Shown here: positions 7,681 through 62,084 of the stretch, piece by piece
Position numbering within the stretch: the first letter of the stretch is position 1
Layout: each line of letters begins with the position of its first letter
Source: Oscillospiraceae bacterium
GTDB lineage: Bacteria; Bacillota; Clostridia; Oscillospirales; CAG-272
Direction of reading: 5' to 3'
Length of the DNA: 64,000 bases
Assembly: GCA_015063325.1 (NCBI GenBank)
Contig: SVUK01000003.1
Span: 62,001 to 126,000, forward strand
Notes under the pieces: model-generated
What the model was told of the DNA's origin: nothing
The model's database searches: none
What the model saw: the letters and a program-made list of their open reading frames with translations, nothing else
Program-made: the position numbers and the translations under genes

Positions 7681-8874
7681 ATGTTCGTTTATGCAGATCA
7701 CGCGGCGACCACACCGATGAGCGAAACCGCGATTGCCGCTATGACAGAGGCGATGCGCACCGTTTGGGGCAACCCCTCCAGCTTGCACACCGTCGGGCAG
7801 GAGGCAAAAGTCGCCTTGGAAAACGCGCGCGAGGAAATCGCGTCGCTTTTGGGCGCAACAGCAAAGGAGATCACCTTTACCTCGGGCGGCTCGGAAGCCG
7901 ACAACCAAGCGATTGTTTCGGCGGCTAAATTGGGCGCCGCCAAAGGCAAAAAGCATATCGTTTCCACCAAATTTGAGCATCACGCCATTCTGCACACGCT
8001 GAATAAGTTGGAAAAAGAGGGATATGAAGTAACCTACCTTGACGTACATGAAAATGGATTGGTCACACCCGAACAGGTAAAAGAGGCAATCCGCCCGGAT
8101 ACGGCTTTGGTAACCATTATGTACGCCAACAACGAGATCGGCACCCTGCAACCCATCCGTGAGATTGGTGCGGTTTGCCGCGCGGCAGGCGTTCTTTTCC
8201 ATACCGACGCGGTACAAGCCATCGGTCATATCGCCGTTGACGTTGTGAAAGATAATATTGATTTGCTCTCCCTTTCGGCGCACAAATTCCGCGGTCCGAA
8301 GGGCGTCGGCATCCTTTATGCCCGTCGGGGCATTCGGCTTGCAACGCTGATCGAAGGCGGCGCACAGGAGAGAGGCAAACGCGCAGGAACCGAAAATATT
8401 CCGGCAATCGTCGGCATGGCGGCGGCGCTGAAAGAAGCGGTTGCAAATCTGGAAGCAAATACTGCAAAAGTCGTTCCGCTCCGCGAAAAACTGATTACAG
8501 GTCTGCGCAAGATTCCCTATTCGCATCTCAACGGCGACCGCGACGCGCGCGTTCCGGGCATTGTCAATTTCTGCTTTGAGGGCATTGAGGGCGAATCGCT
8601 CCTGCTACTTTTGGATATGCGCGGCATTGCCTGCTCGTCGGGTTCCGCCTGCACGTCCGGCTCGCTCGACCCCAGCCATGTTCTGCTCTCTTTGGGCATT
8701 CCCCATGAGGTGGCGCACGGCTCTTTGCGGATTTCGATTGACGAAACGAACACCGAAGAACAGATCGACTATATTTTAGAAGCCGTTCCGCAAGTGGTCA
8801 GCTACCTGCGCACCATGTCACCCGTTTGGGAGGACCTGGAGAGCGGCAAACGCAAACATTTCTTTGCAAAATAA
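7681..8874 (+). CDS. iscS: Cysteine desulfurase, IscS/NifS type
   Basis: This PLP enzyme takes sulfur from cysteine as an enzyme-bound persulfide for Fe-S cluster assembly. The 397-residue product has YADHAATTP at the start. [10 protein letters not shown] contains the PLP lysine, and the catalytic cysteine loop is [11 protein letters not shown] near residue 320. It sits between the Rrf2 regulator and iscU and has a GGAGG site 7 bases before the ATG. The last bases of the gene, including the TAA stop, are repeated imperfectly just downstream (8878-8892). A second desulfurase gene lies at 33.2 kb. Confidence 0.95.
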
Positions 8875-8892
8875 GATTTTGAAAAATAGGAT
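8863..8892 (+). repeat. Tandem duplication of the iscS 3' end (2 x 15 bp)
   Basis: TTTGCAAAATAAGAT (8863-8877, containing the TAA stop) is followed directly by TTTGAAAAATAGGAT (8878-8892), with 13 of 15 bases the same. The copy keeps a stop-like TAG in place of TAA. Confidence 0.8.
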
Positions 8893-8895
8893 AAA

Positions 8896-8923
8896 GATAG
8901 ATAGATAGATAGACAGATAGATA
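8896..8923 (+). repeat. GATA tetranucleotide microsatellite, 7 units
   Basis: Seven GATA units, the fifth changed to GACA, fill the gap between iscS and the CGGAGG ribosome binding site of iscU. Slippage here would change leader length without touching either coding sequence. Confidence 0.95.
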
Positions 8924-8937
8924 CGGAGGAAAATAAA

Positions 8938-9378: not shown

Positions 9379-9389
9379 CGCAATCAAAT

Positions 9390-9447: not shown

Positions 9448-9456
9448 TTCCTTCTT

Positions 9457-12887: not shown

Positions 12888-15800
12888 TTATTTCAAAATC
12901 ACATTTTCTTTCCCGAGAAGATCGCGGAACTGTGCAAGCAGATAATCGCTCAACGCAATTCCGGCATGGTCAAAGTCGTACTGTTTCGTGGACGCATCAT
13001 AAAAGACGACCGGAAAACCGCCCTCAAAGATTTGGGTCAAATTTTCGGCTTTGCGGTATTGCTCGCATTCTTTGTCGGGCACACGCAAAAACAGACGTTT
13101 GGGGCGTTGCGTTTGCGAAGGTTGTTTTGCAGCTTGCGGTGCGGCTTTTTCAACGGCAGATACTTGCGAAGATGTCAATGGTTCTTTGAAATCGGCATTT
13201 TCAACCAACTCCTCTACCGATGCGACCAGCAGTTTCGGCGTTTCCTCGTCGCGTACCGAAAGCGCGCCCGAAACAAACACGGCGCGATCTTTTTGCAAAA
13301 GCGGCGAAATGGCGGCAAACACCGAGGAAAACGCCACACATTCCATTTCGGCATACTGATCCTCCACCGTAAAGAACGCCATGCGCTCGCCGGAACGGGT
13401 ATTCTTGACCGAAATCGCCGTAATCATACCGGCAATGCGAATGCGCAGGCGGTCGGGCAGATCATTCTCGCCTGAAACAAATTTGGAAATCGGATCGGGA
13501 GACAGAATGGACAAATGGCGCGAAAAACTTTCCATCATTGATCCCGAGAAAAACATTCCGGCAACCTCGCGCTCCATCATCAACTTTTCCCGAACGGTCA
13601 GGTCAGGCAGGGGCGGATAGGAAAACGCAGGCGACCGCTCGGCACCGCCGGGCATGGAGAACATATCAAGTTGCCCCAAAAGGTTGTTCTTTCCTTTTTG
13701 CACGGCTTGGTCCAAAAGCGTTTCGCACGCAACCAACAGCCGACTGCGGTAAACGCCCAGCCGATCGAAGGTTCCGGCTTTAATCAGGGACTCCACCATG
13801 CGGCGATTGAGATCGCTTGTCGGCATCCGGTTGACAAAATCTTCAAACGAGGCAAATTTTCCGTTTTTGCGCTCGGCAAAGATATGGTTTAGGAACTGCT
13901 CGCCCACATTTTTAATGGCAAGCAGACCAAAGCGAATATCGTTGCCGTCCACCGAAAAATCGGCGCGGCTCTCGTTGATATCGGGCGGCAAAACGCGGAT
14001 ACCGCGAGAGGAACACTCGGAAATATACTCGGCAATTTTCGCCTGATTCCCCAACACACTCGTCATCAACGCACACAAATATTCGCGTGGAAAATGCTGT
14101 TTGAGATAGGCGGTGCGGTAGGAGATAACGGCGTAAGCGGCAGCGTGCGATTTGTTGAAAGCGTAGTTTGCAAAGCTCTCCATATCGGAAAACAGCTTTT
14201 CCGCCGCGGAAGGGTCAATTCCGCGCTCCTTCGCGCCGACAACAAACGTTTCGCGCTCGGCAAGCAAAACCTTGGCTTTTTTCTTGGACATGGCACGGCG
14301 AACCACGTCGGCGTGCCCGAAGGTATAGCCGGCAAGTTCGCGGAAAACGCTCATCACCTGCTCTTGATAAACGATGACGCCATAGGTGGAGGACAGAATC
14401 GGCTCCAGCTCTGGAATATCGTAGTGCACCGTTTCGGGATGATGCCGCCCCTCAATAAAGCGCGGAATAAAATCCATGGGACCGGGGCGGTAAAGCGCAA
14501 TGGCGGCAATCACATCCTCAATGCGTTCCGGGGCGAGAGAGGTCAGCATTTTCTGCATTCCGGCAGATTCCAGCTGAAATACGCCGCCGGTCTTGCCGGA
14601 TGAAATCAGCCGATAGGTCTCAGCGTCGTCCATGGGCAGATTTTCCAAATCAAACTCCGGCATTCTCTCGCGGATCATCGTTTCGGCGTCGTGCAGAATG
14701 GTCAGATAGCGGAGCGCAAGAAAATCGAATTTCAACAGCCCCAGGCGGGCGATGGTATCCATGTCAAACTGCGTAACCACCGTACCGTTGCTGATGGCGA
14801 GAGGCACGTAATCGGAAACGGGTCGATCGGTAATGACCACTCCTGCCGCGTGTACCGACATATTGCGCGGCATTCCCTCCAGCGCCATGGCTGTATCCAC
14901 CAAACGGCGCACTTTTTCGGAACTTTCGTAAAGCTCCTTCAAATCCCGGTTTTTCAGAGCGGCGGAAATGGTAATCCCCAATTCCTGCGGTACCGCTTTG
15001 GCAACCACATCGACATCGGCATAGGGCATTCCAAGGGCACGTCCAACGTCGCGAATGGCGGCGCGCGCCGCAAGCGTTCCGAAAGTGATGATTTGCGAAA
15101 CATGGTCTTTTCCGTACCGCTCGGCAACATAGTCGATGACCTCGTCGCGGCGGTTGTAGCAAAAGTCCATATCAATATCCGGCATACTGACGCGTTCGGG
15201 GTTGAGAAAGCGTTCAAACAAAAGATCGAACCGGAGCGGATCAACGTCGGTAATACCAAGCGAAAAGGCAACGAGACTCCCGGCTCCGGAACCGCGCCCC
15301 GGTCCTACCGGAATCTCCTTGGAACGCGCAAAAGAAACATAATCCTGAACAATGAGAAAATAATCGGCATAGCCCATACTGTTGATGACCGAAAGCTCGT
15401 AGTCCAGTCGCTCGCGGTATTCTTTTTCGGAATGGTCGCCGAAAACAATCGTTCCGTTTGCCACCCGTCCGTCAAAACCGCGCAGGGCAAGATCACGCAG
15501 GTATCCTTCGGCGCTCTCGCCCACCGGAACCGGAAATTTGGGCAGATAGGTAGTCTCAAAATCAAATTCCACATTGCAGCGCTCTGCAATTTGAACGGTA
15601 TTTTCAAACGCTTCGGGATAAGCGCCCAGCACCGCCGCCATTTCTTCCTCGCTTTTCAGGTAAAATTCGTCGGTCGCAAAGGCGGCAGGCCGCCCCATAT
15701 CCACAGTGGTGTTGGTTTGAATACACATCAGTACCGCCTGTGTGTCGGCGTCGCGCCGGCGCAAATAGTGACAGTCATTGGTGGCAACCAGCGGCAGATT

Positions 15801-16388
15801 GCAGGTCTTGGCAAGTTCTGCCAGCATGGGAATCATGCGCTTTTGCTCGGGCAAATTATGATTTTGCAATTCGATATAAAAATGATTCTTCCCGAACAGT
15901 TCGGCATAGCGGTTAGCCGTTTTCTCCGCCTCGGCAAAATCGCCCTTGGCAAGCAGTTTCGGAATCTTGCCGCCCAAACAGGCAGATAAGGCAATCAATC
16001 CTTCGGAATGGGTACGGAGCAGTTCTTCGTCCACACGCGGTTTGTTATAAAATCCCTCTGTAAAGGAAAGCGACACCATTGCGCAAAGGTTGCGGTAGCC
16101 AGTCTCGTTTTCGCAGAGCAGAACGAGATGATCGGCATACCCTTCGCCGGTGTTGGTTTTGGAAAAGCGCGACCCGTTGGCAACGTAAACCTCGCACCCA
16201 ATAATGGGTTTGATTCCCTCGGCACGGCATGCCTGCCAAAAGGCGACCGTACCGAACATGACTCCGTGATCGGTGATGGCAACGGCATTTTGCCCAACCT
16301 CTTTCACGCGCTTCGGAATATCCGTAACGCGGCAGGCGCCGTCAAGAAGACTGTATTCACTATGCAAATGCAGATGAACAAATCCCAT
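12888..16388 (-). CDS. dnaE: DNA polymerase III alpha subunit, DnaE type
   Basis: This is a replicative C-family DNA polymerase. It opens with a PHP domain (HLHLHSEYSLLDG and ITDHGVMFG). The catalytic PDIDMDF aspartates lie near residue 400, followed by the palm/fingers region, a helix-hairpin-helix and an OB-fold (about 990-1070). No exonuclease domain is present, so it is DnaE rather than PolC. The ATG at 16388 (1,166 residues) has AAGGAG 8 bases upstream; a GTG three codons earlier overlaps that site and is less likely. It follows whiA after 192 bases filled with 21-bp tandem repeats. Confidence 0.95.
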   Translation of the reverse strand: MGFVHLHLHSEYSLLDGACRVTDIPKRVKEVGQNAVAITDHGVMFGTVAFWQACRAEGIKPIIGCEVYVANGSRFSKTNTGEGYADHLVLLCENETGYRNLCAMVSLSFTEGFYNKPRVDEELLRTHSEGLIALSACLGGKIPKLLAKGDFAEAEKTANRYAELFGKNHFYIELQNHNLPEQKRMIPMLAELAKTCNLPLVATNDCHYLRRRDADTQAVLMCIQTNTTVDMGRPAAFATDEFYLKSEEEMAAVLGAYPEAFENTVQIAERCNVEFDFETTYLPKFPVPVGESAEGYLRDLALRGFDGRVANGTIVFGDHSEKEYRERLDYELSVINSMGYADYFLIVQDYVSFARSKEIPVGPGRGSGAGSLVAFSLGITDVDPLRFDLLFERFLNPERVSMPDIDMDFCYNRRDEVIDYVAERYGKDHVSQIITFGTLAARAAIRDVGRALGMPYADVDVVAKAVPQELGITISAALKNRDLKELYESSEKVRRLVDTAMALEGMPRNMSVHAAGVVITDRPVSDYVPLAISNGTVVTQFDMDTIARLGLLKFDFLALRYLTILHDAETMIRERMPEFDLENLPMDDAETYRLISSGKTGGVFQLESAGMQKMLTSLAPERIEDVIAAIALYRPGPMDFIPRFIEGRHHPETVHYDIPELEPILSSTYGVIVYQEQVMSVFRELAGYTFGHADVVRRAMSKKKAKVLLAERETFVVGAKERGIDPSAAEKLFSDMESFANYAFNKSHAAAYAVISYRTAYLKQHFPREYLCALMTSVLGNQAKIAEYISECSSRGIRVLPPDINESRADFSVDGNDIRFGLLAIKNVGEQFLNHIFAERKNGKFASFEDFVNRMPTSDLNRRMVESLIKAGTFDRLGVYRSRLLVACETLLDQAVQKGKNNLLGQLDMFSMPGGAERSPAFSYPPLPDLTVREKLMMEREVAGMFFSGSMMESFSRHLSILSPDPISKFVSGENDLPDRLRIRIAGMITAISVKNTRSGERMAFFTVEDQYAEMECVAFSSVFAAISPLLQKDRAVFVSGALSVRDEETPKLLVASVEELVENADFKEPLTSSQVSAVEKAAPQAAKQPSQTQRPKRLFLRVPDKECEQYRKAENLTQIFEGGFPVVFYDASTKQYDFDHAGIALSDYLLAQFRDLLGKENVILK

Positions 16389-16416: not shown

Positions 16417-16538
16417 GATTTACTTTAAGCTACCTTTGATTTACTTTAGACCATCTTGAATTTACTTTAGACAACTTTTGATTTATTTCTGAATGACTTT
16501 AATTTATTTCAAACAATTTTTTGTTTATTTCAGACTTT
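16417..16538 (-). repeat. 21-bp tandem repeat array between whiA and dnaE
   Basis: Five exact-length 21-bp units (16417, 16438, 16459, 16480 and 16501 onward) and a shorter sixth share the core ATTTACTTTAGAC or ATTTATTTC on the plus strand. On the transcribed minus strand each reads GTCTAAAGTAAAT or GTTTGAAATAAAT, so each has a TAA. Units diverge gradually along the array. The array ends next to the dnaE ribosome binding site. Confidence 0.9.
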
Positions 16539-16580: not shown

Positions 16581-17468
16581 TTATTCCACCGCGTCTAAAA
16601 GGCGGCGCAAACGGTGATTCAAACCCGATTTTGTAATGGGGGGGTTGTGCAAAAGGGCAAGCTCGTCCAAAGACGATTCGGGGTTTTCCAGCCGCAACCG
16701 CGCCGTTTCGCGCAGTTCTTCCGAAAGATTGCCCAGTTTTCCTGTCTCTTTCAAATAGGAAATGGCTTCCACCTGCCGTGCCGACGCCGAGACCGTACGC
16801 GCAAGGTTGCGCGTTTCGCAGTTGGTCATGCGATTTTCATAACTGCGAATATCGCGCATAATACGCGCATTCATCATTTCAAAAGTTTCGCGCTGAGCGC
16901 CCATCATGGTAAAAAGATCCTCCACCGAAGCAGCTTTTTTAAAGTAAAAGCCGGTACGATTTCCCCGTTTTATGCGTCCTGCCGGATAGCCGATCTCCTC
17001 AAAAAAAGCGGAAACGACCGTTTCAGAGGCAGATGGGACGAGAAATTCCATATGAATCGCCTTTTGCAAATCATTAACCGTTCCTAAAGAGAGAAACATT
17101 CCGCGCAAAAAGGCGCCGTTGCATTCCTCGCATCGGGCGCCGAAAACACTGGCAAGGTCCTCTGCATTCGAGGTTTGCATATGATCCAATAACCGCCGAA
17201 ACGAGGGAGAGGCAAACAAAACCTCTTCGTAATATTTGCCGCAAAAGCCGATTTTTCGGTGCATCGGTTCTTTGGAAAATTGCACGCGCAACTCGGCAGC
17301 GGCAAGATCGGCGGTCTGCCCATCGCGAAACCGCGCAATGGCTCCGCCTTTGTTTTCCGGGTCCGGAAACGCGACAAGAAAAAGCCCACAAATCAAGCAT
17401 CGCCGGCAACAATTCTTTTTGACCGGCACCGATAAAAGATCAGCGCGCACCGTATCGGCAAACGACAT
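16581..17468 (-). CDS. whiA: WhiA-type DNA-binding regulator (DUF199)
   Basis: The 295-residue protein has the WhiA layout. A LAGLIDADG-homing-endonuclease-like N-terminal domain contains KKNCCRRCLICGLFL and GAFLRGMFLSLGTVND. The C-terminal helix-turn-helix has LRLENPESSLDELA and ITKSGLNHRLRRL. WhiA binds DNA and affects sporulation in Actinobacteria and chromosome segregation or division in Firmicutes. The ATG has GGAGGTG 8 bases upstream. It lies after murB and before dnaE on one strand, probably in one transcript. In many Firmicutes whiA follows yvcJ and yvcK, which are not in this window. Confidence 0.93.
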   Translation of the reverse strand: MSFADTVRADLLSVPVKKNCCRRCLICGLFLVAFPDPENKGGAIARFRDGQTADLAAAELRVQFSKEPMHRKIGFCGKYYEEVLFASPSFRRLLDHMQTSNAEDLASVFGARCEECNGAFLRGMFLSLGTVNDLQKAIHMEFLVPSASETVVSAFFEEIGYPAGRIKRGNRTGFYFKKAASVEDLFTMMGAQRETFEMMNARIMRDIRSYENRMTNCETRNLARTVSASARQVEAISYLKETGKLGNLSEELRETARLRLENPESSLDELALLHNPPITKSGLNHRLRRLLDAVE

Positions 17469-21854: not shown

Positions 21855-21876
21855 TTTTTATTGAGGTATTTTGGTT

Positions 21877-22914
21877 TTGAACACCCAAGTCATTCAAATT
21901 TCCGATCCCATTCTGCAAAAAAGCGACCTCTCCCGTGCTGCCGAAATTATCCGAGCAGGGGGGCTTGTCGCCTTTCCGACCGAAACGGTTTACGGGCTCG
22001 GCGGAGATGGGACCGACGACAGCGCGGCAAAAAAAATCTATGCCGCCAAAGGGCGCCCATCGGATAACCCGTTGATCATTCATGTTGCCGCGCCGGAGGA
22101 CGCCGACCGCTATGCAGTGGTCAACGCCACCTATCGTCGTCTTGCCAAAGCGTTTATGCCCGGTCCTTTGACGGTCATTCTGCAAAAGCGCGAGATTGTT
22201 CCGAAATCGGTAACCGGCGGATTGGATACCGTTGCCGTCCGTTGCCCTTCGCACCCGGTGGCGCACGCGTTGATCGCGCTTGCCGGTGTTCCGATTGCGG
22301 CGCCCTCGGCAAATCTTTCGGGCAAACCGTCGCCCACCTGCGCCGCGCATGTCATCGCCGATCTTTCGGGACGCGTGGATATGATTCTCGATGGCGGCGA
22401 CTGCGAAATCGGGCTGGAATCCACCATTGTTAAAGTGGACGGAGAAGATGAAATTACCCTGCTCCGCCCCGGCGGAATTACCTACGACGCGCTTTGTATG
22501 GTCGTTTCCAAAGTCAACATTGCCCCGGCAGTAACCCATGCGCTCGCACAAAACGAACATCCGCTCTCTCCGGGAATGAAATACCGTCATTATGCGCCGA
22601 ACATTCCGGTCGTGCTTCTTTCGGGCGAAAGCAAAAAGGTGACCGCATTCCTTGCCAACGAACAAAAAACAAAAAAATGCGCGCTCCTTTGCTATGAAGA
22701 AGAGCTTCCGTTTCTGCGCGCCGATCGCCTGTTCCCGGTTGGCAAAAGGGACGACCTTGCCGCACAGGCGCAAACGCTGTTCCGGCTTTTACGGGAAGCC
22801 GACCGAACCGACGCCGAAATCATCTACGCGCATCTGCCGCCCGAAACCGGATTGGGTCTTGCACTCTATAATCGCATGATTCGCGCCGCGGCACATACGA
22901 TAAAAGAAGTTTAA
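21877..22914 (+). CDS. L-threonylcarbamoyladenylate synthase, Sua5 type
   Basis: This enzyme makes threonylcarbamoyl-AMP from threonine, bicarbonate and ATP, the first step of t6A37 tRNA modification. The N-terminal YrdC domain shows FPTETVYGLG and AAKGRPSDNPL. The C-terminal Sua5 domain shows GMKYRHYAPNIPV, so it is the long Sua5 form rather than TsaC. The start is probably the TTG at 21877 (345 residues), 9 bases after GAGGT; a TTG two codons earlier is too close. TsaD, the second-step enzyme, is encoded at 42.2 kb. Confidence 0.92.
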   Translation: MNTQVIQISDPILQKSDLSRAAEIIRAGGLVAFPTETVYGLGGDGTDDSAAKKIYAAKGRPSDNPLIIHVAAPEDADRYAVVNATYRRLAKAFMPGPLTVILQKREIVPKSVTGGLDTVAVRCPSHPVAHALIALAGVPIAAPSANLSGKPSPTCAAHVIADLSGRVDMILDGGDCEIGLESTIVKVDGEDEITLLRPGGITYDALCMVVSKVNIAPAVTHALAQNEHPLSPGMKYRHYAPNIPVVLLSGESKKVTAFLANEQKTKKCALLCYEEELPFLRADRLFPVGKRDDLAAQAQTLFRLLREADRTDAEIIYAHLPPETGLGLALYNRMIRAAAHTIKEV

Positions 22915-22935
22915 AATGTTTAAAACGTTTAAAAT
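22909..22935 (+). repeat. Tandem duplication at the sua5 3' end (3 x 9 bp)
   Basis: Three 9-bp units, GTTTAAAAT, GTTTAAAAC and GTTTAAAAT, run from the last valine codon and TAA stop of the gene into the gap. Each copy keeps TAA in the same place. Confidence 0.85.
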
Positions 22936-26611: not shown

Positions 26612-26714
26612 ATATCAAACTGAATATCAAATATTTTTTTTATCTAATATCAAACCGTTTTTTATCTGATATCAGACATTTTCTATTGTTTTATCAAATG
26701 TCAAACAGTTTCTT
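26612..26714 (-). repeat. Decayed tandem repeats between potC and potD
   Basis: About four units of 22-29 bp share TATCAAAC followed by a T-run on the plus strand. The unit nearest potC covers its last codons and stop (minus-strand CTGTTTGACATTTGATAAAA). The one nearest potD runs into its AAAGGA site. Confidence 0.75.
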
Positions 26715-30592: not shown

Positions 30593-30599
30593 AAAATTT

Positions 30600-30665
30600 C
30601 AGCGTTTCAGTTTGAAAATTTCAGTATTTTGGTTTGAAAAATTCAACGTTTCGGTTTAAAAAATT
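30600..30665 (-). repeat. Tandem triplication of the rlmL-like gene 3' end (3 x 22 bp)
   Basis: Three units of exactly 22 bp (30600-30621, 30622-30643, 30644-30665) share GTTT-GGTTT-AAAA-TT. The last unit encodes the C-terminal residues FFKPKR of the methyltransferase; the other two are decayed copies beyond the stop, each retaining TGA at the unit edge. Confidence 0.9.
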
Positions 30666-31767
30666 CATAGAGGAAACATGGGATCATACCATTATACTGC
30701 CGCAGGATTTTATCGGCGCGGCGCCCATACAGCTTTTCAAACTGCGGATGAGAGGTGATCACATAAATCTGCCAAGGATCAAACAGAGCAAAATTTTTGC
30801 CCATGGCGCGGTAAAGCGCTTCGGCTTCGATCGGCGTCATCAAGCGTTCCCCATAGGGCGGATTGCAAATGATCGTGCCGCGTCGATCCGGCTTGCGGAT
30901 CGTCCGCGCATCGGCGGTAAAAATTCGGATCTGCTCTTTCACTCCGGCGCGGAAAGCGTTCTCTTTGGCAACGGCAAGCACCTCGGAATCAAGATCCGAC
31001 GCCCATACGGTCACGCCGATCCCTCGCTTGATTTCTGCTTTCGCCGCATCGCGTTCTGCCGCCCAAATGTTTGACCGAATTGCAGGAAAGGCTTCCGCCG
31101 CAAACCGACGTTGCAACCCCGGCGCAATGTTTGCGTGAATCATCGCCGCCTCTACGGCGATTGTTCCCGAGCCGCACATGGGATCCCAAACCAAGGTATC
31201 TTCGCGCGGATGAGAGGATAAAACCAAACCTGCCGCAAGCGTTTCACGCAAAGGCGCCGCGCCTGCCTCGGGACGGTAACCGCGCTTGTGCAACGCCGTA
31301 CCGCTCGAATCGATCATCAGCGTGGCAACATCCTTAAACAGGAAAAACTCCACCCGATAGGTCGCTCCGGTTTCGGGAAACCATTGGATGCCGTATTTGG
31401 AAGAAAGTCGGTTGACAATGGCTTTTTTGATGATTTTTTGGCAGTCGGGCACCGAATAAAGCTTGCTTTTCACCGCGTGTCCAATGACCGGGAAAGCGTC
31501 GTCTTTACCGATCCAGTTTTCCCATGGAAGCGCCTTCGTTCCCTCAAACAATTCCTCAAACGAGGTTGCCGGAAACCGCCCGAGCAGGATAAGCACCCGT
31601 TCGGCGCACCGCAGGCGCAGGTTGGCGCGAACAAGCGTCTGCTCGTCGCCGGTAAAATAAACTCTTCCGTCAATGGTCTCGGTTCTCTTTCCGCCGAAAG
31701 CGTCGATCTCCTGACCGACCAGACGCTCCAGACCAAACATACAGGTTGCAACCAAATCCAGTTTCAT
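30643..31767 (-). CDS. THUMP-domain 23S rRNA guanine-N2 methyltransferase, RlmL/YpsC type
   Basis: This enzyme uses S-adenosylmethionine to methylate a guanine base in 23S rRNA, as in E. coli RlmL (G2445). The start at 31767 (374 residues) follows AAAGGAG. The N-terminal half is a ferredoxin-like and THUMP RNA-binding region. The methyltransferase follows, with DPMCGSGTIAVEAA (SAM motif I) and NPPYGERL (motif IV, target base). The C-terminal YEFFKPKR and stop are part of a 22-bp tandem repeat. The YpsC family of Firmicutes has this size and order. Confidence 0.9.
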   Translation of the reverse strand: MKLDLVATCMFGLERLVGQEIDAFGGKRTETIDGRVYFTGDEQTLVRANLRLRCAERVLILLGRFPATSFEELFEGTKALPWENWIGKDDAFPVIGHAVKSKLYSVPDCQKIIKKAIVNRLSSKYGIQWFPETGATYRVEFFLFKDVATLMIDSSGTALHKRGYRPEAGAAPLRETLAAGLVLSSHPREDTLVWDPMCGSGTIAVEAAMIHANIAPGLQRRFAAEAFPAIRSNIWAAERDAAKAEIKRGIGVTVWASDLDSEVLAVAKENAFRAGVKEQIRIFTADARTIRKPDRRGTIICNPPYGERLMTPIEAEALYRAMGKNFALFDPWQIYVITSHPQFEKLYGRRADKILRQYNGMIPCFLYEFFKPKR

Positions 31768-33051: not shown

Positions 33052-33085
33052 GCGGACTTTCCCACGGAAAAGTCCGCCTTTCTTT
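33052..33085. terminator. Terminator between asd and the second desulfurase gene
   Basis: GCGGACTTTCC (33052-33062) pairs with 33066-33077 with one bulged A and is followed by TTTCTTTTT. It serves convergent genes. A decayed 38-40 bp direct repeat follows at about 33078-33155. Confidence 0.8.
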
Positions 33086-33158
33086 TTGGGATCGAAACGG
33101 GTTTTGAGTGAAACCTTTTCTTTTTTGGGATTAAAACAAGTTTGGATTGAAATGGGTT

Positions 33159-35431: not shown

Positions 35432-35479
35432 TCCTTATTTCAGTCCTTATTTGAGTCTTATTTCAGTCTTTATTTCAAC
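35432..35479 (-). repeat. Tandem duplication of the alr 3' end (about 4 x 12 bp)
   Basis: Four units of 11-13 bp read TTGAAATAAAGAC, TGAAATAAGAC, TCAAATAAGGAC and TGAAATAAGGAG on the minus strand. The first contains the final LysTAA of the gene; the last runs into the next gene's ribosome site. Confidence 0.85.
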
Positions 35480-36723: not shown

Positions 36724-36732
36724 GATACTACC

Positions 36733-36792
36733 TCTGTTTTTTACTTCTTTTTTTACTTCTTTTTTTTACTTCTTTTTTTACTTCTGTTTTAC
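36733..36792 (-). repeat. A-rich 12-13 bp tandem repeats before alr
   Basis: Four to five units of GAAGTAAAAAAA (minus strand) fill the space between murD and the alr ribosome binding site, which itself reads CAGAGGTAG and resembles the repeat unit. Confidence 0.85.
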
Positions 36793-46020: not shown

Positions 46021-46032
46021 AAAATTTGCATG

Positions 46033-46073: not shown

Positions 46074-46097
46074 TATTTAAAGTGTTTATTCCCTATT

Positions 46098-46275
46098 TGA
46101 GAAATTTTTTGTTGGAGAAATTTATTTTTTGTTTGAAAACTTTTTTGTTTGAAAAGTTTTTTCTTGAAAAGTTTTTTCTTGAAAAGTTTGTTTTTTTATT
46201 TGAAAAAAACATTTTTAATTTGATTTGAATTTGAAAAGTTCATTCTTCAAAAGAGTTTATCTTTTATTTGAAAGG
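46098..46275 (+). repeat. AT-rich degenerate tandem repeats before the 46.3 kb gene
   Basis: About seven to eight degenerate units of 15-21 bp share TTTGAAAAGTTTTTTC. The last unit is the ribosome binding site itself (ATTTGAAAGGAAAAAAG). The 265-base gap 46021-46285 otherwise holds only the terminator. Confidence 0.8.
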
Positions 46276-46285
46276 AAAAAAGATC

Positions 46286-46738
46286 ATGACTGAAACCAAA
46301 CCGAAAACAGCTGAAGAATTGCTGGAGGGCACCTATCGCAATGTCCGGATGTGCGCAGATTCCCTGCTTGATCTGTTGCCCCACGTCAAAAACGAAGAAC
46401 TGAAAAGCGAAATGACCACCGAAGTCTCGGTCTACGAGGCGTTCTCCTCCCGTATCGTTAAAGAAATGCGCGAGCACGGCATTACCCCCTCGGAAATCAA
46501 TCCCATTGCCCGATTCTCGGCAAAAATGGGAACCTTTTGGCATACCTTGACCGATCCCTCGGCTCCTCATATCGCACAAATGATTCTGGAAGGGACCACC
46601 ATGGGCGTCGGCAATTTGCTGCGCGCTTTGAGAGAGGCGGAAAACACAGGCGTTCCGGAGCATATTCTGACTATCGCGCGTGACGTTTGCAACTACGAGG
46701 AAGAAACCATGGAGCGAATCAAAGCCTTTTTGAAATAA
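46286..46738 (+). CDS. Small helical protein, possibly ferritin-like fold, function unknown
   Basis: The ATG at 46286 follows GAAAGGA and gives 150 residues. The sequence is strongly helical: ELLEGTYRNVRMCADSLLDLLPHV, then ELKSEMTTEVSVYEAF, AQMILEGTTMGVGNLLRALREAE and CNYEEETMERIKAFL. The spacing of Glu and Tyr in two helix pairs recalls DUF2383/ferritin-like four-helix bundles, but no EXXH metal pair is clear. It is probably cytoplasmic. Its 3' end is duplicated downstream as a decayed 63-bp repeat. Confidence 0.75.
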   Translation: MTETKPKTAEELLEGTYRNVRMCADSLLDLLPHVKNEELKSEMTTEVSVYEAFSSRIVKEMREHGITPSEINPIARFSAKMGTFWHTLTDPSAPHIAQMILEGTTMGVGNLLRALREAENTGVPEHILTIARDVCNYEEETMERIKAFLK

Positions 46739-46966: not shown

Positions 46967-48208
46967 ATGGAACAAGCGAAGTATAAAATCGTTATCACCT
47001 TTGTGGAAGCCGGAATGGGGCATATCACTTCCGCCACCGCTATTGCGGACGCGCTGGAAAAATACCACTCCGATGAGGTAGAGGTCATTCGCACCAATAT
47101 TTTCACCGATACCAACGACAAAGTCTTAATAAAATATCAGCAATTCCTGATTGACGAGGTCAAGCGAAGCAATAAACACCCGGCGCACATGTTCTACGTT
47201 TCCATGACAAGAATGCCGCTGTTCCCCCGGATGTTCTCGCTCATTTTCACCAACGCCACCATTTTTCACCGGGAAAAGAAACGCGTGATGAATATTTTAA
47301 GACGATTTGATCCGGATATGGCGTTCCATACCCACTTTACTCCTACGCACGATTCGGTGGAAGCGGGAAAGAAACGCCGCGGAAATTTTCTGACCGGATT
47401 TTACGATCCGGACACCAGCGTTCACGGTTGGTGGGATAAGCGCGCCGATCTTTGCATTTTCAACAACAAGGGTGCCTACGAGGAAGCGCTCAAGCTGAAA
47501 TACGATCCGAAAAAATGCTTTTGGGCGCCCTTTGCCCTGCGGCAAAAGGTCCTCGATACGCCGAAAGATAAAATTCTTTTGCGCAGAAAACGCGGACTTC
47601 CCGAAAGCGGATTTATCGTAACGCTTTCTTCCAGCGCCTACGCCGGAGGGCTGTTGCTCAAATTCGCCAACCGCTTTTTGGAGATTGACCGTCCTTTCAC
47701 CCTGCTGGTTCTTGCAGGATCAAACGAAAAAGTGCGCGAAAAACTGGAACAGCGTGTCGGGCACACCGGAAAGGTGGATTTGCGCGTTTACGGCTTTGAC
47801 GGAGACGCGCACGAGCTTTACGGAGCCTCGGATATTTTTGTAACCAAAGCCGGTCCGAACGCGCTTTTGGACTGTGTTTATATGGGTACACCTGTCATGA
47901 CCAATTTCTGCGCCAGCCAAATCGAGCGCAAAACGCGCGCCTACTACATCGACGAGCAGAAAACCGGCGTTCATATCAAGGATGAAAACAAAGCCGCCGA
48001 ATTTTTGATCGACTGTATGGACGATCCCGAAAAGCTTGCGCCGTATATTGAAAACTGCAAGCGTTTTGCGCGCGAACTGACCGGCGGTGAAAAAATGATT
48101 GCCGACGCGATTGTGGAAAAATTGCGCAAAAACGGTCCTCCAAAAGCCGCTCGGAATTTGCAAAAAACGGCTGATAAAGCCGAAGAAAAAGAGCTCCTTC
48201 CCGTTTGA
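46967..48208 (+). CDS. MGDG synthase/UgtP-like glycosyltransferase (GT28)
   Basis: The ATG at 46967 has GAGG 9 bases upstream and gives 413 residues. The N-terminal half has VEAGMGHITSATAIADAL, matching the MGDG-synthase N-domain glycine motif. The C-terminal half has the sugar-nucleotide site with SDIFVTKAGPNALLDCVYMGTPVM. The family transfers a hexose from UDP-sugar to diacylglycerol on the cytoplasmic face, making glycolipids and lipoteichoic acid anchors; the donor here is unknown. A Lys/Ala-rich tail (PPKAARNLQKTADKAEEK) follows the domain. Confidence 0.85.
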   Translation: MEQAKYKIVITFVEAGMGHITSATAIADALEKYHSDEVEVIRTNIFTDTNDKVLIKYQQFLIDEVKRSNKHPAHMFYVSMTRMPLFPRMFSLIFTNATIFHREKKRVMNILRRFDPDMAFHTHFTPTHDSVEAGKKRRGNFLTGFYDPDTSVHGWWDKRADLCIFNNKGAYEEALKLKYDPKKCFWAPFALRQKVLDTPKDKILLRRKRGLPESGFIVTLSSSAYAGGLLLKFANRFLEIDRPFTLLVLAGSNEKVREKLEQRVGHTGKVDLRVYGFDGDAHELYGASDIFVTKAGPNALLDCVYMGTPVMTNFCASQIERKTRAYYIDEQKTGVHIKDENKAAEFLIDCMDDPEKLAPYIENCKRFARELTGGEKMIADAIVEKLRKNGPPKAARNLQKTADKAEEKELLPV

Positions 48209-48299
48209 ACCGCCGAAAAAACGCGCTTTTTTTCTGGAAAAACAGGTGCTTTTTCAGGAAAAAATCGGTCTTTTTTCGGAAAAAATTTGGAAAAAACTC

Positions 48300-53537: not shown

Positions 53538-53566
53538 TTGACAAGCTCGAAATTATATGATAATAT
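53538..53566 (+). promoter_or_regulatory. Promoter of the glycogen operon
   Basis: TTGACA (53538-53543), a 17-base spacer and TAATAT (53561-53566). The 340-base gap 53313-53652 holds this promoter, the divergent one at 53343, AT-rich sequence with small imperfect duplications, and the glgB leader; no gene is seen. Confidence 0.75.
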
Positions 53567-53652
53567 ATATGTATAAAAATATGTATAAAGAGAAAACTCT
53601 TTTGCTTTCAATTTGTAACTTGCATTCGATTTGTAAAAGGAGACATCGGCGT

Positions 53653-55569
53653 ATGAATCGGCAGAACGATCAGGCACCCTACTTTTTCCATCAGGGCAGT
53701 AGTTACCGCGCGTTCGACTACCTCGGCGTACACCGCGATGGCGATACCATCGTCTTTCGCGTTTGGGCCCCTAATGCTAACGCCGTTTCGGTGGTTGGCG
53801 ATTTTAACGATTGGAATCCAGCCCTGACTCCTATGGAAAAGGTGACGAGCGGCGGCGTTTGGGAGACAATTCTTCCCTCCGGCGACGTGAAGGACGGGCA
53901 ATGCTACAAATTCTTCATTCGAAACAAAGAAAAAGAACTCTATAAAGCTGATCCCTATGCTTTTCGGGCACAGTTGCCGCCCGAAACGGCGTCGGTCGTT
54001 TGGCAGACGAACGGTCACGTTTGGCGCGACGCCGGATGGCTCCGCCACCGCGCGAAAACGGCGACCCGTGAGACAGTTTTGAGCCAACCGCTGAATATTT
54101 ACGAACTGCACGCCGGCTCCTGGAAACGGCACGAGGATGGCTCGCCGCTCTCCTACGTTGAGCTTGCCGACGAGCTGGTTCCCTATCTCAAAGAGATGGG
54201 GTACACGCATTTGGAATTGATGCCGCTTGCCGAATATCCCTTTGACGGCTCTTGGGGATATCAGATTTGCGGCTACTACGCGCCGACCTCGCGCTACGGT
54301 ACACCGCAGGACTTGATGGAATTCGTAGACAAGCTTCACGAGGCAGGTCTTGGCGTGATTTTGGACTGGGTTCCGGCGCACTTCCCCAAAGACGCGCACG
54401 GGCTTTACGAATTTGACGGTCAGCCGCTTTACGAATATCAGGGAAAAGATCGCATGGAACACGCCGGCTGGGGCACGCGCCGCTTTGACGTTGGGCGCGA
54501 AGAGGTGCAAAGTTTTTTGATTTCCAACGCGGTTTACTGGATCGACGTTTTCCACATTGACGGTTTGCGCGTGGACGCCGTTGCCTCGATGCTCTATTTG
54601 GACTATGACAAAAAGCCGGGCGAGTGGATTCCGAATATTTACGGCGACAACCGCTGCCTGGAAGCGATCGCATTCTTCCAAAAGCTGAACGACCGGCTCG
54701 CCCACCTCTACCCCGACGTTTTGACCATTGCCGAGGAATCGACCGCTTGGGCAAACATTACCCACATGGGTGACGACGGGCTGGGCTTTACACTGAAATG
54801 GAACATGGGCTGGATGAACGACAGTCTTGCCTACCTTTGCGAGGATCCGCTTTGGCGTTCCTATCACCACAACAAACTCACTTTCCCCCTGACCTACGCC
54901 TACTCCGAGCGGTTCGTTCTCCCCGTCTCGCACGACGAAGTCGTTCATGGAAAAAAATCGCTCCTTGACCGCGCTCCAGGTCCTTATGAACAGAAATTTG
55001 CCAACACGCGCGCCTATCTTGCCTATATGATGACGACGCCGGGCAAAAAGCTCCTCTTTATGGGCTCGGAGATCGGACAATTCCGCGAATGGGATTTTGC
55101 CGGGCAGATTGAATGGTTCTTGCTTGACTATCCCATGCATTCGGCGTTTCAATCCTATGTTGCTGCCCTCAACCATTTCTACCTTGCCAACCCTGCCCTT
55201 TGGGAAAGAGACGGCGACTGGATGGGCGGTTTTGAATGGATTGATGCCGACAACGCCGAACAGAGCATTTACTCCTATCGCCGCAAAGATTCCGAGGGAC
55301 ACGAGATCGTCGTCCTGCTCAACTTCCTTCCCGTCCGTCGCGACGATTTTCTGCTTGCCGTTCCCTTTGCCGGGACCTATGAGGAGATCTTCAATTCCGA
55401 CAAAGAGGAATTCGGCGGTTCCGGAATCGTCAACAGCGGTCGTTATCATACTGAGCCTTGCTTGCTCCGTTCCTACGGAAACGCAATTCGTATTACCGTT
55501 CCCCCTATGAGCGCTCTCTTCTTCCGCTGTACGCGGAAAAAGAAACAACCCCGTTCCGGCGTAAATTGA
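53653..55569 (+). CDS. glgB: 1,4-alpha-glucan branching enzyme
   Basis: This enzyme forms alpha-1,6 branches in glycogen. The ATG at 53653 follows AAAAGGAG and gives 638 residues. The N-terminal CBM48 (VFRVWAPNANAVSVVGDFNDW) is followed by the GH13 barrel. The nucleophile is in GLRVDAVASML, the acid in TIAEES and the third carboxylate in VSHDEVVHG. It is the first gene of glgBCDAP, a usual Clostridia order. Its last 24 bases and the following 5 are duplicated in tandem after the stop (29-bp units). Confidence 0.96.
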   Translation: MNRQNDQAPYFFHQGSSYRAFDYLGVHRDGDTIVFRVWAPNANAVSVVGDFNDWNPALTPMEKVTSGGVWETILPSGDVKDGQCYKFFIRNKEKELYKADPYAFRAQLPPETASVVWQTNGHVWRDAGWLRHRAKTATRETVLSQPLNIYELHAGSWKRHEDGSPLSYVELADELVPYLKEMGYTHLELMPLAEYPFDGSWGYQICGYYAPTSRYGTPQDLMEFVDKLHEAGLGVILDWVPAHFPKDAHGLYEFDGQPLYEYQGKDRMEHAGWGTRRFDVGREEVQSFLISNAVYWIDVFHIDGLRVDAVASMLYLDYDKKPGEWIPNIYGDNRCLEAIAFFQKLNDRLAHLYPDVLTIAEESTAWANITHMGDDGLGFTLKWNMGWMNDSLAYLCEDPLWRSYHHNKLTFPLTYAYSERFVLPVSHDEVVHGKKSLLDRAPGPYEQKFANTRAYLAYMMTTPGKKLLFMGSEIGQFREWDFAGQIEWFLLDYPMHSAFQSYVAALNHFYLANPALWERDGDWMGGFEWIDADNAEQSIYSYRRKDSEGHEIVVLLNFLPVRRDDFLLAVPFAGTYEEIFNSDKEEFGGSGIVNSGRYHTEPCLLRSYGNAIRITVPPMSALFFRCTRKKKQPRSGVN

Positions 55570-55603
55570 TTATACAACCCCACCCCGGCGTAAATTGATT
55601 ATT
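55546..55603 (+). repeat. Tandem duplication of the glgB 3' end (2 x 29 bp)
   Basis: 55546-55574 and 55575-55603 match at 25 of 29 bases and both hold CCGGCGTAAATTGATTAT. The TGA stop of glgB is inside the first copy. Confidence 0.9.
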
Positions 55604-59520: not shown

Positions 59521-61947
59521 ATGAGTGATTTACCAAACAGCGCAGAAGTAAAAGAAATTTTAGAAGGCGTTCTGCAGCGCCAATTCGGTTGCTCGGCGGC
59601 GGAGGCTTCGCAGGAACAAATGTACAAAGCGACCGCCATTTCGGTAAAGAACATTCTTTCCGAAAAGCGTTCCGCCTACAAGAAAAAGGTCAATTCCGCC
59701 GGCGCAAAACGCGTCTACTATATGTGCATGGAGTTTTTACTTGGTCGTTCTCTGAAAACCAACCTTTGCAATCTCGGACTTGCCGGCACCTATGAGAAGG
59801 CACTGAAATCCATGGGATTCTCCCTGGAAAAGCTCTACGACTGCGAACCGGACGCAGGTTTGGGCAACGGAGGCTTGGGTCGCCTTGCCGCCTGCTTTAT
59901 GGATTCGCTCTCCTCGCTGGATTACCCGGCTACCGGCTTTTCCCTTTGCTACGAATACGGTCTGTTCAAGCAGATGATTGTAAACGGAATGCAGGTGGAG
60001 CTTCCCGACGTATGGCTTCCCGGCGGCGAAGTTTGGCTCGTTCCTCGCACCGACCGCATTTACAAGGTTCATTTCGGCGGTCATGTTAACGAGCACTGGA
60101 ACGAGGACGGTCACTGCGAAATTTCCTATGAGGGCGGCGAAACATACGAGGCAATTCCCTGCGATATGATGATTTCCGGCGCCGACAGCTCGGCAGTCAG
60201 CCAGCTCCGGCTTTGGCGCGCGCGCAACATTCAAAACTTTAACATGGGTCTTTTCACGCAGGGTCAATATACCAAAGCGCTGGAGGAAAGCAACAGCGCC
60301 GAGATTATTACCAAGGTCCTTTATCCTTCGGATAACCATACCGAGGGTAAGTTGTTGCGTCTGACTCAGCAATATTTCCTCGTTTCCGCATCTGTTCAAA
60401 GCATTCTGCGCGACCACATGGCAGTTTACGGAACGATGGAGAATCTTGCGGAAAAGGTTGCCATCCATATCAACGACACGCATCCGGCACTTTGTATTCC
60501 GGAACTGATGCGCATTTTGATTGACGAATATTTCTTCCCCTGGGATAAGGCTTGGGATATGGTTACGAAAGTGGTATCCTACACCAACCATACCGTTATG
60601 CCCGAAGCACTGGAAACTTGGGACGAGGATTTGTTCAAGCTCCGTCTGCCGCGCATCTATATGATTGTGAAAGAAATCAACGAGCGCTTCTGCCGCGAGG
60701 CTTGGGAACACTTCCCCGGCAACTGGAACACCATCTCCCGTCTTTCGGTGATCGGTTATGGACAGGTGCGTATGGCGAATCTTTCGGTGATCGGTTCGCA
60801 CTCGGTCAACGGCGTTTCCAAACTGCACTCCAAAATCTTGCGCGATTCCACCTTTAAAGATTTTTACAAAATGTTCCCCGATCGGTTTGACAACGTGACC
60901 AACGGTATTGCACACCGGCGTTGGCTCTGCTATTCCAACCCCAAACTGGCAAGTCTGCTTTCCGAGTGCATTGGCGACGGCTATCGCCACAACCCCGAAG
61001 AGCTTGCCGAATTCGCAAAATATGTCGACAACGCCGAAGTCCTCAACCGTTTGCGCGCCATCAAGCACCAGAACAAGGTTGCCTTCTCCAATATGATCCA
61101 CGAAAAAACCGGTCAGTTGGTGGACACCCACTCGGTTTTTGACGTGCAAATCAAACGTCTGCACGAATACAAACGTCAGCTTTTGAATGCGCTCAATATC
61201 ATTGGGCTGTATCTCGATTTGAGCGAGAATCCCAATATGGATATGCAGCCGCAAACCTTCCTCTTCGGTGCGAAAGCCGCCCCCGGCTATGCGATGGCGA
61301 AGCGAATCATAAAACTGCTTTGTATGTTGAGCAAGGATATTGAGGCTCATCCTGCCATTCATGAAAAGCTCTCGCTCGTCTTTTTGGAAGACTACAACGT
61401 CAGCCTTGCCGAGGCGCTCGTTCCCTCGGCGGAGATCAGCGAGCAAATCAGTCTTGCCGGAAAAGAGGCGAGCGGTACCGGTTGCATGAAGCTGATGATG
61501 AACGGCGCTTTGACCATTGGAACGCTGGACGGTGCGAATGTGGAAATGCAAGCCGCCGCAGGAAAAGAGAATATGTTCATCTTCGGACTTACCGCCGAGG
61601 AAGTGGAACAGCTCTGGCTCTCCGGTTACCATTCGCCCTACTATTACAACACCAACGAGCGCCTGAAGCGCATTGTAGACCGTCTTGTTTACGGTTTTGC
61701 CGGCGAATCCTTCTCGGATATTGCCTCCTATCTCCTCAGCGGTCACGGCATTGCCGATCCGTATATGTGCCTTGCAGATTTTGAATCCTACCGCACTACG
61801 CACGAAAAAATGATACAGGATTACCGCAACAAGCCTCTTTGGAACAGAATGTCGTTGCTCAATATTGCGGCTTCCGGTCACTTTTCCGCCGACCGCTCGA
61901 TTGAAGAGTATGCCACGAGAATTTGGGGATTGAAAAAGATTAAATAA
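59521..61947 (+). CDS. glgP: Glycogen/maltodextrin phosphorylase, GT35
   Basis: This PLP enzyme releases glucose 1-phosphate from glycogen ends. The 808-residue protein is of usual length. It has GLGNGGLGRLAACFMDSL and, near the C-terminus, EASGTGCMKLMMNGALTIGT with the PLP lysine. The RIHEYKRQLLN-like segment appears as RLHEYKRQLLNAL. The ATG follows AGAAAGGCG. It closes the operon, so synthesis and breakdown are encoded together. Confidence 0.96.
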   Translation: MSDLPNSAEVKEILEGVLQRQFGCSAAEASQEQMYKATAISVKNILSEKRSAYKKKVNSAGAKRVYYMCMEFLLGRSLKTNLCNLGLAGTYEKALKSMGFSLEKLYDCEPDAGLGNGGLGRLAACFMDSLSSLDYPATGFSLCYEYGLFKQMIVNGMQVELPDVWLPGGEVWLVPRTDRIYKVHFGGHVNEHWNEDGHCEISYEGGETYEAIPCDMMISGADSSAVSQLRLWRARNIQNFNMGLFTQGQYTKALEESNSAEIITKVLYPSDNHTEGKLLRLTQQYFLVSASVQSILRDHMAVYGTMENLAEKVAIHINDTHPALCIPELMRILIDEYFFPWDKAWDMVTKVVSYTNHTVMPEALETWDEDLFKLRLPRIYMIVKEINERFCREAWEHFPGNWNTISRLSVIGYGQVRMANLSVIGSHSVNGVSKLHSKILRDSTFKDFYKMFPDRFDNVTNGIAHRRWLCYSNPKLASLLSECIGDGYRHNPEELAEFAKYVDNAEVLNRLRAIKHQNKVAFSNMIHEKTGQLVDTHSVFDVQIKRLHEYKRQLLNALNIIGLYLDLSENPNMDMQPQTFLFGAKAAPGYAMAKRIIKLLCMLSKDIEAHPAIHEKLSLVFLEDYNVSLAEALVPSAEISEQISLAGKEASGTGCMKLMMNGALTIGTLDGANVEMQAAAGKENMFIFGLTAEEVEQLWLSGYHSPYYYNTNERLKRIVDRLVYGFAGESFSDIASYLLSGHGIADPYMCLADFESYRTTHEKMIQDYRNKPLWNRMSLLNIAASGHFSADRSIEEYATRIWGLKKIK

Positions 61948-61960
61948 CAGAAAAATCAAT

Positions 61961-62016
61961 AAAAAACATGAAAAAAGGAAGGGATTTTTCAATCCCTTCC
62001 TTTTTTCATGTTTTTT
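61961..62016. terminator. Bidirectional terminator after glgP
   Basis: A perfect 26-bp stem (61961-61986 with 61991-62016) has a 4-base loop and T-runs on either strand. It lies between convergent genes. Confidence 0.92.
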
Positions 62017-62017
62017 A

Positions 62018-62084
62018 CTTTTCTGTATTCTTTATTTTTGTGTTTTTATTCTTTATTTTTTCGTTTTCTTTATTTCAATCCTCG
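62018..62084 (-). repeat. Tandem repeats after tgt (about 3 x 18-22 bp)
   Basis: On the minus strand GAAATAAAGAA, containing part of the tgt stop region, recurs as AAATAAAGAATAAAAAC and AATAAAGAATACAG at about 20-bp spacing. Confidence 0.7.

What the first reader, a model, noticed from the sequence alone, without database searches (positions are those of the whole stretch)
8863..62084. Gene-end 'echo' repeats: decayed tandem copies of CDS 3' ends including the stop codon
At least eight genes are followed by tandem copies of their own last bases and stop codon: iscS (15 bp), sua5 (9 bp x3), potC (22-29 bp), rlmL-like (22 bp x3), alr (about 12 bp x4), the 46.3 kb gene (63 bp), glgB (29 bp x2) and probably tgt. 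Unit length differs per site, the sequences are unrelated between sites, and copies decay with distance. That points to local slippage or duplication events anchored at stop codons rather than one mobile repeat. Possible roles are a reserve of stop codons, spacing of the next ribosome site, or no role in a lineage with high tandem-duplication rate.
Basis: partly seen in the sequence, partly recalled or inferred. Interest (0 to 1): 0.75.

Follow-up and report, generated by a model that had tools for sequence, protein, structure and literature searches.

The report
Species-specific tandem duplications in gene spacers
This gut Clostridia genome carries many short head-to-tail DNA duplications in the gaps between its genes; those that overlap a gene's end copy its stop codon without harming the protein, which makes the genes look as if they 'echo', and close relatives largely lack them.

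Summary
The echoes are real, far above chance and almost confined to this genome, but they are not strictly anchored at stop codons. In 1.33 of the 1.68 Mb of the window's genome, 22 of 767 gene ends carry a tandem copy of the gene end with its stop (shuffled spacers: 0.7); seven comparison sets together give 2 of 1431. Arrays, mostly with unrelated units, occur in 66 of 766 spacers, including 14 of 125 divergent spacers, which hold no stop codon; relative G032 (GlgB 92% identical) has them in 4 of 215. At glgB, three relatives have one copy where the window has two. Arrays reach about 30 nt into gene ends but rarely cross a start codon (1 of 765). A local duplication process filtered by selection predicts this: copying a stop leaves the protein unchanged, copying a start or breaking a frame does not. 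Stop-reserve and spacing roles find no support. Stop-bridging is mildly above random placement (30 versus 22.7). The closest known pattern is the tandem repeats of archaeal Borg elements, some beginning inside gene ends; here copies are mostly imperfect and the excess is intergenic. The cause is unknown: six repair functions tested are present.

The parts
8863..8892 (+). 15-bp pair over the stop of the iscS/nifS-type gene (7681-8874 +), followed by an AGAT tetranucleotide run 8895-8923
   Evidence: TRF, 86% match; below my stop-bridging cut-off; gene family
22909..22934 (+). 9-bp x3 array bridging the stop of the sua5/TsaC-type gene (21871-22914 +)
   Evidence: gene family
26636..26711 (-). 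about 22-bp array bridging the stop of the potC-like gene (26701-27525 -)
   Evidence: gene family
30593..30667 (-). 22-bp x3.4 array bridging the stop of the RlmL-like gene (30643-31767 -)
   Evidence: gene family
35432..35477 (-).
   Evidence: Pfam PF06838
46708..46802 (+). spaced echo (offset 63, 32 bases matched) of the end of gene 46286-46738 + (no family found)
55545..55602 (+). 29-bp duplication bridging the stop of glgB (53653-55569 +); single copy in G031, G032 and G033
   Evidence: GlgB
62014..62075 (-). 21-bp x2 array abutting, not copying, the stop of tgt (62075-63211 -); spacer 127 bp against 54 bp in G032
   Evidence: Tgt
16417..16531 (-). 21-bp array inside the spacer between WhiA-family gene 16581-17468 - and DNA polymerase III alpha gene 12888-16388 -; not stop-bridging
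36729..36790 (-). 12/25-bp array abutting the start side of gene 35470-36723 -; not stop-bridging
46096..46206 (+). 15-bp array inside the spacer 46021-46285; spacer 265 bp here, 75 bp in G032
48217..48286 (+). about 21-bp degenerate array starting 9 bp after the stop of gene 46967-48208 +
   Evidence: TRF; gene calls
33083..33152 (.). 39-bp x1.9 array in a convergent spacer
53554..53636 (.). 12-bp and 18-bp arrays in a spacer called as divergent (no stop codon), upstream of glgB; would fall in the gene if the longer start at 53557 were used
   Evidence: TRF; ORFs; gene calls

Best explanation
The lineage leading to this species accumulated many independent short tandem duplications (unit mostly 7 to about 30 bp, sometimes re-amplified to about ten copies) in its intergenic spacers, most likely through replication slippage or misalignment, later blurred by substitutions. 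What survives is set by selection. A duplication inside a spacer, or one that spans a stop codon, leaves the upstream protein unchanged because translation still ends at the first copy. One that spans a start or ribosome-binding site, or breaks a reading frame, is removed. Stop-codon echoes are therefore the visible edge of a spacer-wide process, not its target. Shown: excess over shuffles, near-restriction to this genome, single-copy state in relatives, the stop/start asymmetry, occurrence in divergent spacers. Inferred: slippage as the molecular step, selection as the filter, and why only this lineage has it.
For: Arrays in 66/766 spacers against about 1 in shuffles; relatives G032 4/215, G027 2/198, G019 1/252; E. 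coli 1/103; 78 loci of other Clostridia 13/672. In spacers of 60-250 bp: 48/408 against 2/323 in the three relatives (Fisher P 9e-11). AT content alone is not the cause: AT-richer Clostridia (spacer GC 0.333 against 0.382) have 9/309. Orthologous spacers (207 of 938 could be matched): 17 distinct spacers with an array only in G000, 5 only in a relative, 2 in both (20 and 5 pairs, since two spacers were compared with several relatives); pairs with a G000 array are on average 58 bp longer than the relative, the others 6 bp. Stop-bridging 22/767 against start-bridging 1/765 (P 5e-6). Of 31 arrays whose edge lies inside a gene end, 29 stay within 30 nt; upstream of starts most edges stop about 10 nt short. 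All 30 arrays found in gene interiors have periods divisible by 3. One of the two arrays shared with a relative lies beside a gene whose product I recognise as CtsR (recall) and looks like its operator, so a repeat with a likely function is conserved.
Against: A general tandem-duplication mutator should also leave in-frame duplications in proteins, but coding arrays are not more frequent than in relatives (3.0 per 100 kb against 2.0-4.6); 237 ortholog pairs with G032 show no tandem insertion on either side; polarised coding insertions are 13 against 15. So the process may be spacer-directed rather than filtered by selection alone. Stop-bridging is somewhat above random placement. Junctions fit slippage only loosely: of 39 two-copy arrays at >=85% identity, 8 match over less than a full unit, 15 have 0-2 extra matching bases and 16 have more. 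Five arrays occur only in a relative. Starts in my gene calls are less certain than stops. No repair defect was found.
Confidence: 0.72

Rival explanations
1. Stop codons, or the transcription/translation ends that coincide with them, attract the duplication process (true anchoring).
For: Stop-bridging is 30 against 22.7 expected from random placement, 21 against 12.5 in spacers >=100 bp and 10 against 4.1 in spacers >=150 bp. Array-edge density in the last 30 nt of genes is 1.5 per kb (29 arrays) against about 1.0 in the first 80 nt after the stop (46 arrays) (counts, division mine).
Against: Divergent spacers without stops carry as many arrays (14/125). Array edges are at least as dense 10-29 nt upstream of starts (1.7-2.2 per kb). 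Random placement ignores promoters and other constrained parts of long spacers, which may inflate the excess.
Confidence: 0.14
2. A genome-wide mutator: loss or change of a repair or replication function raised the duplication rate everywhere.
For: The burst is almost confined to this lineage; its third-position branch is longer (1943 against 1578 changes) and AT-biased (GC>AT 1729, AT>GC 696). Its MutL linker carries a 39-bp in-frame array absent from G031 and G032. A Y-family polymerase domain is found in G000 but not in the near relatives G031, G032 and G033, which are 61-92% complete.
Against: MutS, MutL, the PolA 5' exonuclease domain, RecJ, XseA and RadA are present in G000, and Ku is found in none of the 11 genomes tested. 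G027 and G019 have a Y-family polymerase and lack the burst. First- and second-position changes are fewer than in G032 (1123 against 1424) and coding insertions no more frequent.
Confidence: 0.2
3. The echoes are selected: reserve stop codons, or spacing for the next ribosome-binding site.
For: 19 of 29 stop-bridging genes have an in-frame stop within 10 codons against 14.2 (sd 2.4) in shuffles, which follows from the copies themselves. In third and later copies the stop triplet matches at 41 of 45 positions, against 161 of 182 for gene-end bases and 125 of 155 for downstream bases, a small difference not tested.
Against: Periods show no in-frame bias (14/5/13), other genes have fewer backup stops than shuffles, and 7 of 32 cases are convergent. 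Ho and Hurst 2019 report no evidence for selected additional stops in bacteria (PMC6764699; abstract and section list seen).
Confidence: 0.04
4. One or a few mobile or dispersed repeat families inserted near gene ends.
For: 22 of 109 arrays have a similar stretch elsewhere, 8 array pairs are related, and a few look like dispersed families.
Against: 87 of 109 arrays have no similar stretch elsewhere, and glgB shows a duplication of its own end that relatives hold in single copy.
Confidence: 0.03
5. Assembly artefact of a metagenome-assembled genome.
For: No reads could be examined.
Against: Most arrays hold copies that differ by substitutions, all but one of the 109 are under 120 bp, and other assembled genomes treated alike largely lack them.
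Confidence: 0.03

Closest known systems
Tandem repeats of archaeal Borg elements (Schoelmerich et al. 2023, PMC9879509; abstract, passages, section 28 and the first parts of sections 6 and 21 read)
   Same: Many loci with essentially unique units; enrichment in A on the coding strand (here 0.407 in arrays against 0.328 in the rest of same-strand spacers); intergenic periods not bound to 3; rarely shared with close relatives; [quoted passage not shown]
   Different: Borg repeats are counted as perfect copies, about half lie in ORFs, and they make up 0.29-1.02% of the element (paper's Table 1). Here only 4 arrays (0.028%) pass the perfect >=50 nt, >=3 unit test, none of them in an ORF, and the carrier is a bacterial chromosome.
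TAACTGA direct repeats of marine Beggiatoaceae (MacGregor 2015, PMC4679880; search listing and passages read)
   Same: Intergenic direct repeats; [quoted passage not shown]
   Different: One fixed 7-nt unit; here units differ at most sites.
Bacterial VNTR/minisatellite loci and heptamer repeats (recalled; partly from passages of PMC4679880)
   Same: Short-unit tandem arrays thought to change copy number by slippage.
   Different: Usually scattered loci (recall); a species-wide burst across some 9% of spacers was not in the listings I saw.
Additional 3' stop codons (yeast tandem stops PMC1088959, search listing only; bacteria PMC6764699, abstract and section list)
   Same: Extra stops after the gene end.
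   Different: In yeasts those are reported as selected in-frame stops; here they look like by-products with no frame bias.

Membership tests
Borg-type tandem repeat regions | perfect units, >=50 nt and >=3 units, 20-76 per element of 0.6-1.1 Mb | tested here: not met
   4 in 1.33 Mb, 0.028% of sequence
Borg-type tandem repeat regions | unique unit at each locus | tested here: met
   87 of 109 arrays without similar stretch elsewhere; the other 22 include a few dispersed families
Borg-type tandem repeat regions | A enrichment on the coding strand | tested here: met
   A 0.407 in arrays against 0.328 in the rest of same-strand spacers; no significance test made
Borg-type tandem repeat regions | about half of repeats in ORFs, making disordered protein repeats | tested here: not met
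   30 arrays in 998 kb of gene interiors, rate not above relatives; 0 of 4 perfect repeats in ORFs
Borg-type tandem repeat regions | rarely conserved in closely related genomes | tested here: met
   2 of 19 orthologous spacers with a G000 array have an array in the relative; rates
Borg-type tandem repeat regions | unit number varies within a population | not testable with these tools
   no reads or second strain available
Selected reserve (additional) stop codons | in-frame excess of downstream stops | tested here: not met
   192/222/191 of 545 spacers with a stop in frames 0/1/2; genes without echoes 163 against 190.9 in shuffles
Stop-anchored duplication | arrays depend on the presence of a stop codon | tested here: not met
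   14/125 divergent spacers carry arrays
Stop-anchored duplication | stop-bridging above random placement | tested here: inconclusive
   1.3- to 2.4-fold at threshold 12 (P 0.0035-0.023), P 0.02-0.05 at threshold 15; the null ignores spacer constraints

The most novel reading that the evidence does not exclude
A bacterial chromosome has acquired a Borg-like, spacer-directed tandem-duplication activity: a lineage-specific process that keeps copying 7-30 bp stretches of non-coding DNA, including gene ends with their stops, while leaving coding sequence alone for mutational rather than only selective reasons.
Probability: 0.13. Interest if true: 0.75.

Novelty: new variant of a known kind. Interest (0 to 1): 0.47.

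Why it matters
Bacterial spacers are generally thought to be kept short by deletion (recalled). Here one species, with a median protein identity of 89% to its neighbour G032, has spacers visibly growing by local duplication, with single-copy relatives available as the before-picture. That allows a direct test of how spacers grow and which boundaries selection defends (starts strictly, the ground behind stops hardly), and whether the archaeal Borg repeats reflect a more general process. It also warns that motifs found after stop codons in such genomes can be duplication debris.

Tried and rejected
Stop-codon reserve and ribosome spacing, a mobile repeat, loss of MutS, MutL, PolA 5' exonuclease, RecJ, XseA or RadA, and gain of Ku were tested and set aside. 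A Y-family polymerase domain is in G000 and not found in G031-G033, but G027 and G019 have one and lack the burst. AT-richness alone was rejected as the cause. I looked for microhomology at junctions; the result was mixed. I looked for more in-frame tandem insertions in proteins: none in 237 ortholog pairs with G032 or 151 with G027, one (in G019) in 177 with G019. Heterogeneity along contigs was seen but not explained. Literature: seven searches showed no title or abstract start that reports gene-end echoes as a bacterial species-wide trait; most listings were cut (for example 12 of 2,039), and the library holds open-licence papers only.

Limits: gene calls come from my own script; ends are exact where a gene is real, starts less so, and it misses short genes (160 genes called in 200 kb of E. 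coli). One of 79 loci of other Clostridia was dropped because of N runs. Shuffle means rest on 3 shuffles. The relatives are samples: G032 390 kb, G027 and G019 400 kb each, G031 48 kb, G033 60 kb. In my notebook I wrote 12/672 for other Clostridia; the rows sum to 13/672. The binomial P (0.004) uses 20 against 5 pairs; for distinct spacers, 17 against 5, my own arithmetic gives 0.017.
Full report
WHERE IT IS. The window is bases 62001-126000 of contig 14 of a 1.68 Mb genome in 24 contigs. The nearest named record is an 'uncultured Clostridia bacterium' MAG contig (92% identical GlgB); it is most likely the relative G032, whose contig 6 has the same length of 26,511 bases. G031 and G033 are about as close (91%), G027 is 80%.

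THE OBSERVATION. TRF lists the arrays in the window. To test echoes I called genes with a trained codon-model script over 1.33 Mb of the genome (1100 genes) and asked, for each gene end with a spacer of at least 20 bp, whether a self-match containing the complete stop codon occurs at an offset of 7-80 bp. At score >=13, 22 of 767 ends qualify, against a mean of 0.7 in dinucleotide-shuffled spacers; at score >=12, 23 against 0.7 shuffled and 6.0 when spacers are swapped between genes. Striking examples outside the window have ten or eleven copies: a 15-bp unit at C18:279169-279335 and an 8-bp unit at C21:125699-125782.

NOT ONLY STOPS. The same kind of array lies throughout spacers: 40/515 same-strand, 12/126 convergent and 14/125 divergent spacers. 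Divergent spacers have no stop codon. Coverage by arrays (threshold 12) is 5.7-7.7% over the first 120 nt after a stop, 3.2% in the last 20 nt of the gene and 1.1% in the 20 nt before that; upstream of starts it falls to 1.2% in the last 20 nt and to 0.15% in the first 20 nt of the gene. Of 31 array edges inside gene ends, 29 lie within 30 nt of the stop; on the start side 2 edges lie within 10 nt upstream and 1 inside the gene, against 25 at 10-29 nt. When the observed arrays are placed at random in their own spacers, 22.7 stop-bridging cases are expected against 30 seen (P 0.023); in spacers >=150 bp 4.1 against 10 (P 0.0035). I read this as a process acting across spacers with at most a mild preference for gene ends; part of the excess may come from promoters and other constrained parts of long spacers that the null ignores.

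ALMOST CONFINED TO ONE GENOME. Arrays are found in 66/766 spacers here, 4/215 in G032, 2/198 in G027, 1/252 in G019, 1/103 in E. coli K-12 and 13/672 in 78 loci of other Clostridia; stop-bridging is 22/767 here and 2/1431 in all the others together. With spacer length restricted to 60-250 bp the contrast is 48/408 against 2/323 in the three relatives. Small samples of G031 (1/24 spacers), G033 (1/38) and other genus members (0/18) agree. In the 207 spacers that could be matched to a relative, 17 carry an array only in this genome, 5 only in a relative and 2 in both; pairs with an array here are 58 bp longer than the relative's on average, others 6 bp. At glgB three relatives have a single copy of the 29-bp stretch with the stop at the same place. 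At C17:155561 the duplication appears, from the aligned sequences, to have changed the last residues of the upstream protein, so not every case is silent (inference).

WHAT THE ARRAYS ARE LIKE. Of 109 arrays (score >=12), periods run from 7 to 63 bp, 98 of them at 31 or below, with no bias modulo 3 (39/36/34). 87 have no similar stretch elsewhere; the rest include a few dispersed families. Arrays in same-strand spacers are A-rich on the coding strand (0.407 against 0.328). Copies are often imperfect, so many arrays are not recent.

MECHANISM. A tandem duplication that spans a stop leaves the first copy, and so the protein, intact; one that spans a start places a second start and ribosome site upstream. 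That alone predicts the asymmetry seen. The molecular step is inferred: slippage or misalignment followed by re-amplification. Of 39 two-copy arrays at >=85% identity, 8 match over less than a full unit, 15 show 0-2 extra matching bases and 16 more, which neither demands nor excludes microhomology. The six repair functions tested are present in G000. A Y-family polymerase domain is in G000 and not found in G031-G033, but two other relatives without the burst have one. In 35 gene triples with G027 as outgroup, the lineage shows a GC-to-AT shift (1729 against 696 changes; G032 1273 against 943), more third-position changes than G032 (1943 against 1578) and fewer first- and second-position changes (1123 against 1424). 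Against a plain mutator, coding sequence shows no excess of arrays (3.0 per 100 kb; 2.0-4.6 in the three relatives), no tandem insertions in 237 ortholog pairs with G032 and no more insertions than G032 (13 against 15), although mutL just beyond the window does carry a lineage-specific in-frame array. So either proteins are strictly protected by selection or the process favours spacers; the data cannot separate these.

FUNCTION. A reserve of stops predicts in-frame periods and an excess of downstream in-frame stops; neither is seen genome-wide, in line with the published absence of such selection in bacteria (PMC6764699, abstract). A spacing role fails in convergent cases (7 of 32). By contrast the repeat beside the gene I recognise as ctsR is shared with G032, and the same sequence occurs in G027, as expected for an operator. 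The CtsR identity and operator motif are recalled, not tested.

KNOWN KINDS. The nearest described pattern is the Borg tandem repeats, some of which have the first unit within gene ends (PMC9879509). This genome fails the strict Borg criteria of perfection and ORF content. I file it as a new variant of lineage-specific tandem-repeat proliferation: works like, but is not a member.

Noticed in passing
G000 C14:126043 on (just beyond the window's right end): The mutL gene carries an in-frame 39-bp tandem array in its linker (repeated 13-residue unit), absent from MutL of G031 and G032; the enzyme otherwise reads intact.
   Followed up: partly
G000 C17:196188-196222: A direct repeat in a divergent spacer beside a gene I recognise (recall) as ctsR, shared with G032 and seen in G027; probably the CtsR operator.
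   Followed up: partly
G000 C21:78310, C17:372315, C17:372416, C14:10344; C21:79047 and 80610; C5:20630 and C20:13430: Small dispersed repeat families, distinct from the local duplications.
   Followed up: no
G000 C7:13351 and G019 C18 (loci L212-L226): A 44-47 bp tandem unit of similar sequence occurs in two species of the genus, suggesting a shared dispersed element.
   Followed up: no
G000 C17 against C18, C21 and C14: Array frequency is lower on C17 (11/254 spacers) than on C18 (21/166), C21 (9/72) or C14 (14/117); cause unknown.
   Followed up: partly
G000 C21:16308-16408: G032 has a single promoter-like stretch where this genome has about six copies of a 17-bp unit; could be an amplified operator.
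   Followed up: no
G000 C17:43031-44596: Y-family DNA polymerase gene present here and in G027, G019, G021, G026 and G034, not found in G022, G030, G031, G032 or G033.
   Followed up: partly
window 8895-8923: AGAT tetranucleotide run of about seven copies between the iscS-type gene and the next gene; a likely length-variable locus.
   Followed up: no
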